Below are positions 1-24,687 of a DNA stretch of 64,000 bases, piece by piece; position 1 is the stretch's first letter, and each line of letters opens with the position of its first letter. The position numbers and the translations under genes are program-made. Below the pieces are notes generated by a model. That model worked only from the letters and a program-made list of their open reading frames with translations. It searched no databases and was not told the DNA's origin. This stretch comes from Bryobacteraceae bacterium. Its GTDB lineage: Bacteria > Acidobacteriota > Terriglobia > Bryobacterales > Bryobacteraceae. The DNA lies in assembly GCA_023384675.1 (NCBI GenBank), contig JAHDVK010000017.1:1-64000 (forward strand). The letters run 5' to 3'.

Positions 1-360
1 TGGAAGCAAGCTGAATTGCGATTTGAATGACTTTATATTATGCGGGGCTTAGTAAAGCCGGCGTTGAGTCTTCTCGTATTCACCATGGATTTCGCGATTC
101 CGGGGATCTGGGTTTCAGCGGTCCCGCAAGAGTGCCCCAATGCGCCCAAATTTTCTCCGAGGCAGAAAAGGCCCACGGTCTGACTTCATCGGCCCCGATG
201 CTCAATCCGCCATCCTTCGCAACCTTGCGCGGTTTTCGCCGGTTTGAGCCACCGCCACCGCCGGATGTCTCCGGCGCGCATCTGTGAGATCATCTGTTAA
301 CACTGGGTGAGCCGCCTGCGACGGACTACCTCCCGTAGTAGATGCGGCTCGGCAATCATC
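1..360. other. leading stretch with no gene recognised
   Basis: An 86-codon open frame runs through positions 27-287 but has no ribosome binding site, no recognisable domain and a composition like non-coding DNA, so it is not called. The stretch must hold the promoter of the downstream protein kinase gene, but no convincing -35/-10 pair was found. The left edge may cut a gene that ended before the window. Confidence 0.4.
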
Positions 361-6471: not shown

Positions 6472-6852
6472 ATGAAACGCTTAAAGACGGCTGACAGCAC
6501 AAAGGCATTCGAGGATGCTCTCGCCGAAAAACCCGACGTGGCGCGCTACTATTTGCGCCTCTTCATAACCGGAACCACCCCTAGGTGCGCTCGCGCCATC
6601 GAAAATATTCGAGCCATTTGTGAGGCTAACCTGCCTGGCCGATACGACCTGGAAGTCATCGATATCTATCAACATCCGGAGCAGGCCAAGCCGGAGCAGA
6701 TTGTCGTTACGCCGACACTGGTCAAGAAACTACCACTCCCATTCCGCAGGATGATCGGGGATCTGTCCGACAACGAGCGCGTCCTGGTCGGGTTGGACAT
6801 TGTCCGGAGTCCGCGGCCGGCCACCGCGCCGGAGAAGGAACATGGCACCTGA
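6472..6852 (+). CDS. KaiB-family protein (second, divergent copy)
   Basis: A 126-residue KaiB paralogue starting 11 bases after the first. It has a longer N-terminus (about 25 residues before LRLFITGTT), the core motifs VIDIYQHPEQA and TPTLVKKLP, and [16 protein letters not shown] followed by a Pro-rich tail. The two copies differ clearly across the first half, so this is an old duplication or separate acquisition rather than a recent tandem copy. Its end overlaps the kinase gene by 11 bases. Two KaiBs beside one KaiC could let the module exchange partners; this is inference. Confidence 0.9.
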   Translation: MKRLKTADSTKAFEDALAEKPDVARYYLRLFITGTTPRCARAIENIRAICEANLPGRYDLEVIDIYQHPEQAKPEQIVVTPTLVKKLPLPFRRMIGDLSDNERVLVGLDIVRSPRPATAPEKEHGT

Positions 6853-8467
6853 TACACGGCCCGAAACTCGAGAGGAGCTACTGGAGCACAATCGAAATCT
6901 GCAATCACGCCTGGATGAGGCCGAGGAAATTCTCCGTGCGCTGAGGGATGGCGAAGTAGACGCGATCGTCGCTGCGGGTCCAGAGGGCGACCGAATCTAT
7001 ACGCTCAAGGGTGCGGATAATGCGTACCGGATCATGGTCGAGGAGATGGGGGAAGGCGCGCTCACTCTTTCGCTGGACGGCCTGATCCTATTCTCCAACG
7101 AGCACTTTGCCGCCATGCTCCGTCGTCCTCTTGAACGGGTGATTGGCGAGCACCTGGAAGATTTTTTCGTCCCGGAAGATACGGGCTTAGTCTCCGCGCT
7201 GCTCAAAAGTGCGGGCAGAAGGAAAGCCGAGGTCCGCTTGAAAACGGACCATGGAGCCTCCATACCGGTCTACGTATCGGTTCAGAATGTGCTTCTGAAT
7301 GGAACAGCCTGTCTCTGCGTCATGGTCACGGATTTGAGCGACCAGAAGCGCTATGCGGAGATAGCCGCCGTGCTGGAGGCGGTCCCGGCGGGCGTCTTCA
7401 TTGCGCAGGATGCGGAGTGTCGAAGCATATTCGGCAATCGCATGGCATACGAGCTATTGCGTGCGCCGCCCGCAAGTAATGTCTCGATGTCTGCGCTTGA
7501 ACCGGAGAAGTCAATGCCTTGGCGCGCAGTCAAGGACGGCAGGGACATCCCGACCGAGGAATTGCCAATGCGGCTCGCCGCCCGCACTGGCAAGCGAGTG
7601 CGGGACTACGAGTTAGACCTCTTGTTCGATGATGGCGTTTGTCGATGCTGGCTCGGTAATGCCGTGCCGCTATTCGATCAAACGGGCCAGTCGCGCGGAG
7701 CCGTGGGTGCATTCATGGATATTACCGAGCGGCGGCGGACAGCGGAGGCGCTTGAGTCAGTCAATGACGACCTTCGCAGCCTTGGTAACGCCCTCACGCA
7801 GGACATTTCGGAGCCGCTGAGCACGGTAGTGAAATTCACAAGGCTACTGGCAGAGGAGTACCAGGGAAAGCTTGGCAAAGATGCAGAAACATATATTTCT
7901 GATTCCGTCGAGGCTGCTCTAAGAATCGAGACCCTCCTGAAGACCCTCCTGGCTTACTGGAGCGTGACGGAGCGCACCGGAGTGAATCTATCATCCGTAG
8001 ACTGCAACCAAATGCTGTCACGGACGCTGCAACACGTCCAGGTTGCGATCCAGGAATGCGGCGCGACGGTGACTTCTGGTACCTTGCCGACCCTGGTGGC
8101 CGATGAGTTGATGCTGGAGGAGGTTTTCCGCACACTGATTGGTAATGCGATTCGGTATAGGGGGGAAGCAACGCCCAGTATCCACATCTCTGCCGTACCC
8201 ACTTTCGATCGCTGGCTATTCTCGGTGCGGGACAACGGCATTGGCATTGACCCGATCCATGCTGAGAAGGTATTCGGCATGTTCAAGCGTCTGCACGGAA
8301 GCGAAATCCCCGGCACGGGCCTCGGACTGACACTTTGCAAAAAGATCGTTGAGCGTCACGGTGGACGCATTTGGGTCGAGCCGGCCGCCGAAGGGGGTTC
8401 GGCTTTCCGATTTACCATTCCGACCTCCCTGGACACAATCCTGGGATACTCGTCGCCAGAACCATAA
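6842..8467 (+). CDS. PAS sensor histidine kinase-like protein with a missing H-box histidine
   Basis: Protein of 541 residues with a coiled N-terminus containing the EEILRALRDGEVDAIV motif often seen in KaiBC-linked kinases, then two PAS-like regions (about 60-180 and 185-300), a DHp-type helix pair and a HATPase domain. The ATPase part is intact: N-box with GNAIRYRG, G1 DNGIGIDP and G2 GTGLGLTLCKK. The H-box reads LTQDISEPLS, so Gln320 (CAG at 7799-7801) stands where the usual SHDLQEPL motif has its phospho-accepting His. The protein should bind ATP but cannot autophosphorylate at the normal site. The ATG at 6842 has a GGAGAAGG site and overlaps kaiB2. No response regulator is adjacent. It may sense, act as a pseudokinase, or partner another kinase. 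Confidence 0.88.
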   Translation: MAPDTRPETREELLEHNRNLQSRLDEAEEILRALRDGEVDAIVAAGPEGDRIYTLKGADNAYRIMVEEMGEGALTLSLDGLILFSNEHFAAMLRRPLERVIGEHLEDFFVPEDTGLVSALLKSAGRRKAEVRLKTDHGASIPVYVSVQNVLLNGTACLCVMVTDLSDQKRYAEIAAVLEAVPAGVFIAQDAECRSIFGNRMAYELLRAPPASNVSMSALEPEKSMPWRAVKDGRDIPTEELPMRLAARTGKRVRDYELDLLFDDGVCRCWLGNAVPLFDQTGQSRGAVGAFMDITERRRTAEALESVNDDLRSLGNALTQDISEPLSTVVKFTRLLAEEYQGKLGKDAETYISDSVEAALRIETLLKTLLAYWSVTERTGVNLSSVDCNQMLSRTLQHVQVAIQECGATVTSGTLPTLVADELMLEEVFRTLIGNAIRYRGEATPSIHISAVPTFDRWLFSVRDNGIGIDPIHAEKVFGMFKRLHGSEIPGTGLGLTLCKKIVERHGGRIWVEPAAEGGSAFRFTIPTSLDTILGYSSPEP

Positions 8468-21490: not shown

Positions 21491-22198
21491 CTAGTTGCCG
21501 GCGGTGAACGCGTCGCCGCGCGCCGGGCTGGACAGTGACTCGGGAGGGCGCGCCAAGCCGCAGGCCAGCGCGATTTGCGTGAGGCCGGCGACATTGTTCA
21601 CGCCCAGTTTCTTCATCAGGGTCTTGCGATAGGAGCGCACCGTCTGCACGCCGAGATTCAGCATCACGGCGACTTCCTTGCTCGTTTTGCCTTCGGCCAC
21701 CAGGCGCATCACCTGCTGTTCGCGCGGCGTGAGCGTATCGAGAATGGAGGCCGCGGGACCGGCGGCGGCGTCGAGGTTGCCGCGCTGAATGCGGGTGAGC
21801 AGGCGGTTGGAGACTTGCGGACTCAGATAGGAGCCGCCCTTGACCACCGTGCGCAGCGCATCCACCAAATCGCTGTCGCTGGCTTTTTTGAGCAAGAAGG
21901 CGCGCGCGCCGGAGCGGATGGCCTGAATCACGCTGGCCTCGTCGTCGTACATCGAGAGGATCACGACGCGGGCGTCGGGCTGGTGGCGCAGGATCTCGAT
22001 GGTGGCTTCGATGCCGTTCAAGCCGGGCAGGTTGATATCCATCAGAATCAGGTGCGGCTTGAGTTCCGCGGCCAACCGCACGGCGTCCTCGCCTGTACCG
22101 GCTTCGCCGGTGACGCGAAATTCGCCGCTCTGCTTGAGGATGGCCTTCAGGCCATCGCGCATGATCTTGTGATCGTCGACCAGCAGGATGTCATGCAT
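21491..22198 (-). CDS. LuxR/NarL-family response regulator
   Basis: Protein of 235 residues. The receiver domain has DDHK acidic pocket residues, [13 protein letters not shown] with the phospho-acceptor Asp, and LLKKAS with the conserved Lys. The C-terminal LuxR HTH carries [22 protein letters not shown] and [19 protein letters not shown] short Pro/Ser tail ends the protein. It follows the degenerate kinase with a 9-base gap, which is the usual order for a NarX/NarL-type pair. Its target genes cannot be inferred; the amidohydrolase that follows is a candidate. Confidence 0.93.
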
Positions 22199-22207
22199 GG
22201 CGGCTCC

Positions 22208-22834
22208 TCATGCGCTTGCCCGCGATCCGGCGGGAACCGGCTTGAGCACCAGTTCGAACGCCCGGTTGGGATCGTCGCAGATGATCTCCACGCCCGCCGC
22301 GGCGGCCAGGTGCCGCCAGCCCTCGAGCCAGGGTTGGCAGGAACAGTCTTTTCCTGGCACGGTGAGCTTCATCCCGGCATCGGAGCGGCGCACGCGGAGG
22401 CGCTGCGCGGCTCGCTCGATCGAACACGCGGTCGCCCAATCCCGGGCCACGCGAAAACAAAGCTCGCACTGCGCGATCGTCCAGGCGCAATCGGTGGGCG
22501 GCTCTTCCCAGTCGATCAATTCGTGGCGCGCCAGCGCGGTTAATCCGCCATCCAGCCCGCCGCGCGCAAAGAGTTTGACGTCGTTTTCGGCCAGGAGAGC
22601 GCGGATCGCGGCGAGAGCCGAATCCAGCGCGGCGCGCAGACCTTCCGCCGATTCCTTCCAGTCTTCGCCGGCCCCGCCATTGGACGCTAACAGGTCCAGG
22701 TGCAAGCCCGCTGCGCAAAGGCTGGGGCCGACATCGTCGTGAAGCACCCGGCTGACGCGCTGCCGGACAGAGGCCACGGCGTAGTCGAGTGAACCAGCCG
22801 GCCCGCCGGAGCGGCTCTGCGCAGGATTCCCCAT
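22208..22834 (-). CDS. NarX-like histidine kinase with degenerate ATPase domain
   Basis: Protein of 208 residues from an ATG at 22834. It has a HisKA_3-type H-box RQRVSRVLHDDVGPSLCAA, with His in the LHDDVGP motif. The region after it should be a HATPase domain with an N-box and two glycine-rich loops. Only a remnant of the N-box (FRVARDWATA) and a strand are visible, with no DxGxG or GxGL motif, so it likely cannot bind ATP. There is no input domain or membrane helix. It may be a phosphotransfer or phosphatase partner for the regulator that follows, or a decaying kinase. Confidence 0.7.
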   Translation of the reverse strand: MGNPAQSRSGGPAGSLDYAVASVRQRVSRVLHDDVGPSLCAAGLHLDLLASNGGAGEDWKESAEGLRAALDSALAAIRALLAENDVKLFARGGLDGGLTALARHELIDWEEPPTDCAWTIAQCELCFRVARDWATACSIERAAQRLRVRRSDAGMKLTVPGKDCSCQPWLEGWRHLAAAAGVEIICDDPNRAFELVLKPVPAGSRASA

Positions 22835-22898
22835 ACAGGTACAGACCCTATCATGAACTACCCGCAAGCGCGGGTGCAAGATCCTCAGATTGGGGATG

Positions 22899-23861
22899 CT
22901 ACTTGCGCGCTATCGCCTTACGGGCCGCTTCCGCCACCTGGGGAGCACGCAGTCCGTAATGATCCAGCAGGCCGTCGGGGGTGCCGGATTCGGCGTAGCG
23001 GTTCTCAACCCCGATGAACTCGACCGGCGCGGGGGCATGCCGGGCCAGCGCCTGCGCGACGCGGGCGCCAAGACCCGAGTCCACCAGATGCTCCTCGGCC
23101 ACCACTAGCGCCCCGGTTTCGCGGGCCGCTTTCGCCAGCGCCTCGTCGTCGAGAGGCTTGATGGTGTGGATATCGAGGACGCGGGCAGAGACGCCTTCGC
23201 CCGCCAGCAGATCGGCCGCTTTCAGGCATTCGGCCACCAGCAGGCCCGTGCCCACCAGGGTGACGTCCGTGCCCGGGCGCAGTTGCATGGCTTTGCCGAA
23301 TTCGAAGGCGGTGCCGGCTTCATACACCAGCGGCGCCTTCGGGCGGCCGGCGCGGATGAAGACGGGGCCCTGATGCGCCACCGCCCATGCCACCGCCGCG
23401 CGCATGGCCACTTCATCGGCGGGGCTGAGCACCCAGAAACCGGGGAGCGCGCCCGCGAGGGCGAAGTCCTCGATCGACATCTGCGAGGGGCCGTCCTCGC
23501 CGATCGAGATGCCCGAGTGGGTGCCGATCACCTTCACGTTCACGCCCGGATACGCCACGGTGGTGCGCAACTGCTCGAAGCCTTTGGTCAGCACAAATGC
23601 GGAAAAGCTCGCGACGAAGGGAATCTTGCCGGCCATTGCCAGGCCCGCGCCGAGCGCCACCATATTGGCTTCCGCGATGCCGCAGGAGAAGAAGCGGTCG
23701 GGAAACTCCTGGGCGAAGTAGTGGACCATGGTGGACTTCGACAGGTCCGCATCGCACACCACGATATCGGGATTCTTCTTCGCGGCTTCCACCAGCGCGC
23801 GGCCGAAGGCTTCGCGCGTCGCGGCGCCGTATTTCAGTTCATAGGGGGTCACGGTGGCCAT
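22899..23861 (-). CDS. transketolase, C-terminal subunit
   Basis: Protein of 320 residues forming the pyrimidine-binding and C-terminal domains of transketolase. Motifs are ISIGEDGPSQMSIEDFA, FSCGIAEANMVALGAGLA with the catalytic Glu, and FIRAGRPKAPLV. The ATG at 23861 (MATVTPYELKYG) is used; the frame is open 4 codons further. It sits 4 bases after the N-terminal subunit gene. Such split transketolases act together as one enzyme in the pentose phosphate pathway and in some species in other keto-transfer steps. Confidence 0.93.
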   Translation of the reverse strand: MATVTPYELKYGAATREAFGRALVEAAKKNPDIVVCDADLSKSTMVHYFAQEFPDRFFSCGIAEANMVALGAGLAMAGKIPFVASFSAFVLTKGFEQLRTTVAYPGVNVKVIGTHSGISIGEDGPSQMSIEDFALAGALPGFWVLSPADEVAMRAAVAWAVAHQGPVFIRAGRPKAPLVYEAGTAFEFGKAMQLRPGTDVTLVGTGLLVAECLKAADLLAGEGVSARVLDIHTIKPLDDEALAKAARETGALVVAEEHLVDSGLGARVAQALARHAPAPVEFIGVENRYAESGTPDGLLDHYGLRAPQVAEAARKAIARK

Positions 23862-23865
23862 GGCG

Positions 23866-24687
23866 TTACGCAAGCTCCTTCAGGGCGAGTTCGACTTCAT
23901 CGGCGGTGGGCGGCACGCCGTGGAACTTCGGATTATTCTCCATGAAACTGACGCCCTTGCCTTTCACGGTGTGGGCGATGAGCACGGTGGGTTTGCCCTT
24001 GGTGGCGGCAGCCTCGGCGAAGGCCGCCTGCACGGCGGGAATGTCGTGGCCGTCCAGTTCGATGACATGCCAGCCGAAGGCGCGCCACTTCCCCGTCAGC
24101 GGCTCCAGTTCCATGATGTCCTTGACGAAGCCATCGAGCTGGAGCTTGTTGTAATCGACGATCGCCACCACGTTATCGATCTTGTGGTAGGAGCCGAACA
24201 TGGCGGCTTCCCAGATCTGGCCTTCCTGGATTTCGCCGTCGCCGAGCATGACGTAGGTCCGCCAGGTTTCGCCGTTCAAGCGTGCCGCCGCGCCCATGCC
24301 CAGGGCGAGCGAAAGCCCCTGGCCGAGCGAACCAGTGGAGGCCTCGAGCGAAGGGATATAGCGGATGTCGGGGTGGCCCTGGTAGATCGAGCCCAACCGG
24401 CGGAGGGTCTTCAGCGTCTCGACAGGCGTGTAGCCCGCTTCGGCCATCGCCGCATACAGCACCGGCGCGGCATGGCCCTTGCTGAGGATGAAGCGGTCGC
24501 GATCGGCCTTCTTCGGTTTCGCCGGGTCGTGGTTCATCACGTCCCAGTAGAGAACCGTGACAATCTCGACAGCCGAAAGCGACCCGCCGGGATGCCCGGA
24601 TTTCGCGGCGCCGGTCATTTCAACGATGTGGCGCCGGATTTGCTTCGCAACCCGGGCCAGCTCTTCGGGGGATGACGTCTTTTGCAT
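23866..24687 (-). CDS. transketolase, N-terminal (TPP-binding) subunit
   Basis: Protein of 273 residues matching the thiamine diphosphate-binding half of transketolase. It contains SGHPGGSLSAVEI, LSKGHAAPVLYAAMAE, ASTGSLGQGLSLALGMG and MLGDGEIQEGQIWEAA (GDGxxxEG, TPP/Mg site), then VAIVDYNKLQLDG. Partner of the downstream C-terminal subunit; the two genes are 4 bases apart. The length fits the split form rather than a truncated full-length enzyme. Confidence 0.95.
   Translation of the reverse strand: MQKTSSPEELARVAKQIRRHIVEMTGAAKSGHPGGSLSAVEIVTVLYWDVMNHDPAKPKKADRDRFILSKGHAAPVLYAAMAEAGYTPVETLKTLRRLGSIYQGHPDIRYIPSLEASTGSLGQGLSLALGMGAAARLNGETWRTYVMLGDGEIQEGQIWEAAMFGSYHKIDNVVAIVDYNKLQLDGFVKDIMELEPLTGKWRAFGWHVIELDGHDIPAVQAAFAEAAATKGKPTVLIAHTVKGKGVSFMENNPKFHGVPPTADEVELALKELA

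What the first reader, a model, noticed from the sequence alone, without database searches (positions are those of the whole stretch)
22208..22834. Kinase of a NarX/NarL-type pair without an ATP-binding site
The His box is intact (LHDDVGP) but no G1 or G2 glycine loop can be found. This is the mirror image of the Kai-linked kinase at 6.8 kb, which keeps the ATPase and loses the His. Two half-functional kinases in one window raise the question of whether they work with others by trans-phosphorylation, although nothing links these two directly.
Basis: partly seen in the sequence, partly recalled or inferred. Interest (0 to 1): 0.55.

Follow-up and report, generated by a model that had tools for sequence, protein, structure and literature searches.

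The report
Histidine kinase turned phosphate-relay protein
A small bacterial signalling protein has kept the histidine that carries phosphate but lost the part that binds ATP, and its relatives in one family of soil bacteria seem to have made the same change several times, which suggests that it passes phosphate on for another kinase instead of making its own.

Summary
The 208-aa protein at 22208-22834 (minus strand) has a NarX/DesK-type (HisKA_3) histidine hairpin with its His and no ATP-binding motif; it is not a frameshift. Homologues in the same place (between a split transketolase and a NarL-type regulator) were read in 77 genomes of its family (Bryobacterales): His is present in 77 of 77, the ATP motifs are gone in 40 of 75 scorable. 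A tree needs about 9 changes (at least 4 well supported); a single origin is rejected (AU p 3.8e-6). After the loss, hairpin and regulator stay under purifying selection; the only fully invariant hairpin columns are the His and the Arg that contacts the regulator in DesK; the regulator keeps its acceptor Asp in 74 of 74. The former ATPase domain keeps its predicted fold but evolves faster. The Gln needed for phosphatase action in this class is Pro here and absent in 31 of 40. Best reading: a histidine phosphotransfer protein made from a kinase, working like Spo0B, ChpT or PhyT, fed by an unidentified kinase. The Kai-linked 'mirror' kinase is not a general partner (2 of 75 genomes). No biochemistry was done; the donor is unknown.

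The parts
22208..22834 (-). Degenerate HisKA_3 histidine kinase, proposed histidine phosphotransfer protein (208 aa)
   Evidence: Pfam HisKA_3 only
22586..22801 (-). DHp helical hairpin (residues 12-83): two long helices
   Evidence: AlphaFold2 model; HisKA_3 match residues 24-82
22739..22741 (-). His32, phospho-acceptor codon, invariant in 77 of 77 homologues
22724..22726 (-). Pro37, at the place of the phosphatase Gln (His+5)
   Evidence: Gln role from passages of PMC3510030 and PMC5231405
22601..22603 (-). Arg78, aligned with DesK Arg235 that contacts the regulator; invariant in 75 of 75 scored homologues
22238..22573 (-). Pseudo-ATPase (CA) domain (residues 88-199): fold predicted, N box, G1 and G2 absent
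21491..22198 (-). NarL-type response regulator (Response_reg + GerE), phosphorylation residues intact
22899..23873 (-). Transketolase, C-terminal half; upstream neighbour used as the anchor for homologues in the same place
23866..24687 (-). Transketolase, N-terminal half

Best explanation
The protein is a former HisKA_3 sensor kinase that can no longer bind ATP and now serves as a dimeric histidine phosphotransfer protein. Proposed steps: (1) some other kinase, either directly in trans or through a receiver domain, puts phosphate on His32 [inferred; donor unknown]; (2) the NarL-type regulator next door docks on the hairpin through the class-typical contacts (Leu44, Arg78) [contacts inferred from DesK; residues shown conserved]; (3) phosphate goes to the regulator's Asp, and could go back [inferred]; (4) the remnant ATPase domain is kept only as a folded body, perhaps for stability or docking [fold predicted, role inferred]. 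The same change happened several times in the family. Likely split: no ATP-driven autokinase about 0.93; phosphotransfer as the main job, rather than phosphatase or sequestration, about 0.65.
For: No ATPase match; HisKA_3 in 77 of 77, HATPase_c in 36 of 77 homologues at E<=0.01. Motif score: 35 intact, 40 lost, 2 cut by contig ends. His in 77 of 77; among the 40 lost rows, of window positions 24-99 only His32 and Arg78 are fully invariant, and Arg78 aligns with DesK Arg235, which bridges to the regulator. Regulator acceptor Asp, Ser and Lys in 74 of 74. Selection in 14 lost pairs: hairpin omega 0.05-0.37 (13 computable, median 0.16), regulator 0.03-0.23 (13, median 0.06), pseudo-ATPase 0.20-0.58 (12, median 0.36); pseudo-ATPase above hairpin in 11 of 11 pairs with both. 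Phosphatase Gln lost in 31 of 40 lost rows against 1 of 35 intact, while His, which passages of PMC5231405 call nonessential for NarX phosphatase action, is never lost. Tree: 9 changes, bootstrap 8-10, 4 forced by well supported branches; one clade rejected, p-AU 3.8e-6; 9 changes also on the regulator alone. Model: hairpin plus alpha/beta domain; VraS ATPase domain Z 10.7 over 113 residues, phosphotransferase 4qpj Z 9.3 over 171 residues at 4.5 A.
Against: No donor found: one orphan intact HisKA_3 kinase is widespread (64 of 75 genomes) but in both states alike (5 of 40 lost and 6 of 35 intact lack it). 9 of 40 lost rows keep the Gln, and on the tree Gln changes only about 4 times, so the sign test cannot reach significance. 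Asp33 is lost in 3 of 40. Genome G174 has only an 88-aa piece and no regulator within the stretch read, so decay does happen. Pseudo-ATPase omega is raised, as expected also for slow decay. The models rest on 7 sequences each. Some pairs share a sequence and several have high dS.
Confidence: 0.62

Rival explanations
1. It is a dedicated phosphatase of the regulator: the kinase half is lost and the hairpin only removes phosphate put on by small donors or other kinases.
For: ATP binding is not needed in principle for a hairpin phosphatase; 9 of 40 lost rows keep the DxxxQ Gln.
Against: The class-typical phosphatase Gln is Pro in the window and absent in 31 of 40 lost rows; His, dispensable for NarX phosphatase action by the passage read, is kept in 40 of 40.
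Confidence: 0.12
2. Heterodimer with an intact HisKA_3 kinase: the partner's ATPase domain phosphorylates His32 in trans, or the pseudo-kinase inhibits the partner as RetS does GacS.
For: The window's genome has 7 other HisKA_3 proteins; in 2 of them (L134, L136) no regulator lies within about 1.5 kb; L136 has homologues in 64 of 75 genomes. RetS is among the structural matches of the second model.
Against: L136 does not follow the lost state; the L134 query matches 19 of 75 genomes at E<=1e-40 with identities of 36-50% apart from itself. Hairpin dimers between such distant members are not shown.
Confidence: 0.14
3. Gene in decay: the kinase is no longer needed and the sequence drifts.
For: Raised omega of the pseudo-ATPase domain; a fragment without regulator in G174.
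Against: Open frames in whole clades with deep branches, hairpin omega well under 1, His and Arg invariant in 40 of 40, regulator fully conserved in its active site.
Confidence: 0.06
4. A hidden or unusual ATP site: the protein still binds ATP through a diverged pocket.
For: The fold of the ATPase domain is predicted to remain.
Against: N, D, G, G, G, G motif positions are AVGDQW here; 18 of the 40 lost rows match none of the six (4 of these 18 have no aligned domain there) and the motif positions differ from clade to clade.
Confidence: 0.05

Closest known systems
PhyT (PhyP) of Sphingomonas melonis, HisKA_2-type phosphotransferase (PMC5898713: abstract and passages read)
   Same: Kinase with degenerate ATPase domain, intact His, coded beside its regulator; shown to pass phosphate to it
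   Different: HRxxN hairpin, membrane sensor, anti-sigma type regulator; ours is HisKA_3, soluble, NarL-type regulator
ChpT of alphaproteobacteria (PMC9981736: passages read)
   Same: Small soluble dimer, hairpin plus degenerate ATPase domain; full-length structural match of the window model; Pro at His+5 (ChpT Pro27 = CckA 327, CckA His322)
   Different: No sequence match of its family in Pfam at E<=10; fed by a hybrid kinase; not beside a NarL-type regulator
Spo0B of Bacillus (named in passages of PMC5898713 and PMC5231405)
   Same: Hairpin phosphotransferase from a kinase-like protein
   Different: HisKA-unlike sequence, sporulation relay; no sequence match here
DesK/NarX HisKA_3 kinases
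   Same: Hairpin family, His box, regulator contacts, NarL-type partner
   Different: They have ATP-binding motifs and the phosphatase Gln
Split kinases CheA3/CheA4 (PMC3591291: passages read)
   Same: His and ATPase on different proteins
   Different: There the ATPase partner is known; here none was found

Membership tests
Functional HisKA_3 sensor kinase (NarX/DesK class) | HisKA_3 hairpin with His | tested here: met
   PF07730 E 2.9e-7, above cut-off
Functional HisKA_3 sensor kinase (NarX/DesK class) | ATP-binding domain with N box, G1, G2 | tested here: not met
   No HATPase match at E<=10; motif positions AVGDQW against NDGGGG
Functional HisKA_3 sensor kinase (NarX/DesK class) | DxxxQ phosphatase motif | tested here: not met
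   Asp33 present, Pro37 instead of Gln
Histidine phosphotransfer protein derived from a kinase (Spo0B, ChpT, PhyT kind) | Intact His hairpin | tested here: met
Histidine phosphotransfer protein derived from a kinase (Spo0B, ChpT, PhyT kind) | ATPase domain present as fold, without ATP motifs | tested here: met
   Motifs absent; fold predicted
Histidine phosphotransfer protein derived from a kinase (Spo0B, ChpT, PhyT kind) | Accepts phosphate from and gives it to receiver domains | not testable with these tools
   needs biochemistry
ChpT family proper | Match to its own Pfam family (name recalled: HPTransfase) | tested here: not met
   only HisKA_3 at E<=10
PhyT / HisKA_2 | HRxxN motif | tested here: not met
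   HDDVG in its place; motif from passage

The most novel reading that the evidence does not exclude
In this bacterial family the autokinase step of a whole orthologous two-component system was already dispensable in the ancestor, because the protein was fed by a separate donor (as passages on Caulobacter PhyK describe for kinase-dead forms). The ATP site was then lost again and again, about 9 times, and once even the whole ATPase domain (genus code g8), turning a NarX-type kinase into a phosphotransfer protein each time. The rows with an intact ATP site may work the same way.
Probability: 0.35. Interest if true: 0.75.

Novelty: new variant of a known kind. Interest (0 to 1): 0.57.

Why it matters
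Spo0B, ChpT and PhyT show that kinases can become phosphotransfer proteins, each as a single case and none of the HisKA_3 class. Here one orthologous locus holds both states side by side in many genomes, with several changes of state. This gives replicate natural experiments on how a two-component system becomes a relay: which residues must stay (His, the regulator-contact Arg), which go (ATP site, phosphatase Gln), and in which order. It also warns that annotation as 'sensor histidine kinase' next to a regulator does not mean that the pair signals by itself.

Tried and rejected
Frameshift or sequencing error: rejected, because 15 of 15 rows of the clade share the state. Kai-linked kinase as partner: rejected as a general partner. 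Orphan kinases L134 and L136 as donors: L134 has no close homologue; L136 is widespread but does not follow the state, so no donor is named. Independent-pairs test of Gln loss with ATP-site loss: no power (4 pairs on starred branches). A profile of the 17-row alignment could not be used to scan named genomes; a narrower one gave 6 loci of named Bryobacterales/Solibacter/Acidobacteria records, all on contigs of the same lengths as genomes already in hand. Paper searches for a HisKA_3 phosphotransferase with degenerate ATPase domain found none (open-access library only; one search returned 0 papers). Structural searches list no Spo0B chain among the 50 rows shown; that says nothing against it.

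Rows left out: of 149 genomes with a transketolase match I took the 4 of the window's genus and 100 of the other 145, chosen by hand; the 45 left out were mostly near contig ends or further members of genera already in hand, so counts are for the sample and not for the family. Of the 104 stretches, 27 had neither kinase nor regulator by these searches; a few of these are cut short by contig ends. 2 of 77 were not scored because a contig ends in them; G174 (88 aa) is counted as lost but is not in the tree, which has 74 rows.

Full report
Check. The minus-strand ORF 22834-22208 codes for 208 aa. Pfam finds only HisKA_3. It follows the transketolase halves (22899-23873, 23866-24687) and precedes, by 9 bases, a Response_reg+GerE regulator (21491-22198), all on one strand. 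The regulator's start lies right behind a GAGGAG stretch that overlaps the end of the kinase gene (one search prints the sequence), so co-translation is likely [inference].

Homologues. A search of 61 relatives with the protein found 22 genomes with matches. Because similarity is low, I anchored on the transketolase: 149 of 200 genomes of the family match it at E<=1e-90. From 100 of these plus the 4 genomes of the window's genus I read the downstream stretch. 77 of 104 hold a hit to the kinase profile and 74 of these also the regulator; 27 hold neither. Named loci in the same group are Bryobacterales, Solibacter and 'Acidobacteria' metagenome genomes.

State of the ATP site. Pfam: HisKA_3 in 77 of 77, HATPase_c in 36 of 77 at E<=0.01. 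Six motif positions (N; D, G, G; G, G) were read from an alignment. Rule N+D+G gives 34 intact and 41 lost; five of six gives 35 and 40, used from there on; 2 rows are cut by contig ends. Genus codes with the lost state: g1, g6, g8, g23, g24, g28, g31, g34, g56, g59, g67, g76, g81, g88. In g8 (3 genomes) no ATPase domain aligns.

What stays. His is the only invariant column among 77 rows in one alignment and is in 40 of 40 lost and 35 of 35 intact rows in another. I note that the rows were trimmed around a His motif, but every profile hit had one and none was dropped. Among lost rows, of window positions 24-99, only His32 and Arg78 are 40 of 40. By the HMMER alignment Arg78 corresponds to the Arg 47 residues after the His in DesK, which is Arg235 (His188 in DesK); the paper's passage gives Arg235 a salt bridge to the regulator and Leu200 a place in its pocket; Leu200 is His+12, where all 40 lost rows have L, I, M or V. 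The regulator keeps acceptor Asp, Ser and Lys in 74 of 74; the first acidic residue is Asp in 67 and Glu in 7.

What goes. Apart from the ATP motifs, the Gln at His+5 is in 34 of 35 intact and 9 of 40 lost rows (P 20, S 7, G 4). Passages say that DxxxQ is needed for NarX phosphatase action (PMC3510030) and that His is not (PMC5231405). The pattern therefore fits transfer better than phosphatase action. But by the tree Gln changed only about 4 times and the paired test has no power. One intact row (G034, sister of the all-lost g24 rows) already has Pro, so Gln may go first. In ChpT a Pro at the same distance kinks the helix (passages: ChpT 27 = CckA 327, CckA His322); that Pro at His+5 is usual in HisKA kinases is recalled.

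History and selection. On hairpin plus regulator columns (ATPase domain left out) the state changes 9 times; bootstrap 8-10; 4 forced by well supported branches; 24 of 71 inner branches are open and some rows are long. Holding the 39 lost rows of the tree as one clade is rejected (p-AU 3.8e-6). The regulator alone also gives 9, with weak support. The count cannot by itself tell loss from gain; regaining all motifs is implausible [inference]. Pairwise omega: 14 lost pairs, hairpin median 0.16 (13 computable), regulator 0.06 (13), pseudo-ATPase 0.36 (12), the last above the first in 11 of 11 pairs with both; 7 intact pairs: hairpin 0.09, ATPase domain 0.11, regulator 0.04, ATPase above hairpin in 5 of 7. 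Some pairs share a sequence and dS is high in several.

Structure. AlphaFold2 of the window protein (7 sequences): pLDDT 77, pTM 0.68, helices 12-52 and 57-83, then an alpha/beta domain 88-199. Foldseek lists kinases first and phosphotransferase 4qpk at rank 17 with TM 0.46. VIA-align: VraS ATPase domain Z 10.7 (113 residues, 3.1 A), DesK Z 9.8 (108, 3.1 A), phosphotransferase 4qpj Z 9.3 (171, 4.5 A); unrelated helical proteins also score 8-10 on the hairpin, so only the alpha/beta part is telling. A second model, of the L132 homologue: pLDDT 83.5, ATPase-domain matches DesK, VraS, DosS at Z 12.4-12.9 over 107-134 residues at 2.4-3.7 A. So a GHKL-type domain remains as a fold without its motifs.

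Donor. The genome has 8 HisKA_3 proteins. The other 7 show N box and G1 by eye (L136 has an unusual G2); 5 of 7 have a regulator within the stretch read, L134 and L136 have none. L136, with HisKA_3 and HATPase_c and a hydrophobic N-terminal part in its sequence, has matches in 64 of 75 genomes at E<=1e-40, in 35 of 40 lost and 29 of 35 intact. It is a candidate, nothing more. Intact members of some genera carry an N-terminal PAS_4 domain; the window protein has about 30 residues before the His and no sensor domain.

Mechanism and verdict. Shown: no ATP motifs, retained and selected His hairpin, normal regulator, several origins, retained fold. Inferred: that phosphate reaches His32 from another protein and goes to the regulator. 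Works like: Spo0B, ChpT, PhyT (PMC5898713 abstract and passages). Is a member of: none of their sequence families; by descent a HisKA_3 kinase. New variant of a known kind.

Noticed in passing
window 6800-8467 (+): The Kai-linked PAS-PAS kinase has Gln for His in its hairpin (ALTQDISEPL) with an intact HATPase_c; its only match at E<=1e-100 in 75 genomes (G157, 75% identical) keeps the His, so the loss looks recent and private.
   Followed up: partly
G000:C5:46371-47552 (L136): An orphan HisKA_3 kinase with a hydrophobic N-terminus, no regulator within about 1.5 kb, with matches in 64 of 75 genomes of the family.
   Followed up: partly
L079, L083, L100 (genus code g8): The homologues in this genus are a hairpin with no ATPase domain after it, still followed by the regulator; two of three lost the Asp beside the His.
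   Followed up: partly
L093 (G174): An 88-aa remnant of the kinase without the regulator in the stretch read: a case of real decay within genus code g24.
   Followed up: no
window 21491-24687: Why a two-component pair sits behind a split transketolase in so many genomes is unexplained; the regulator may control carbon metabolism.
   Followed up: no
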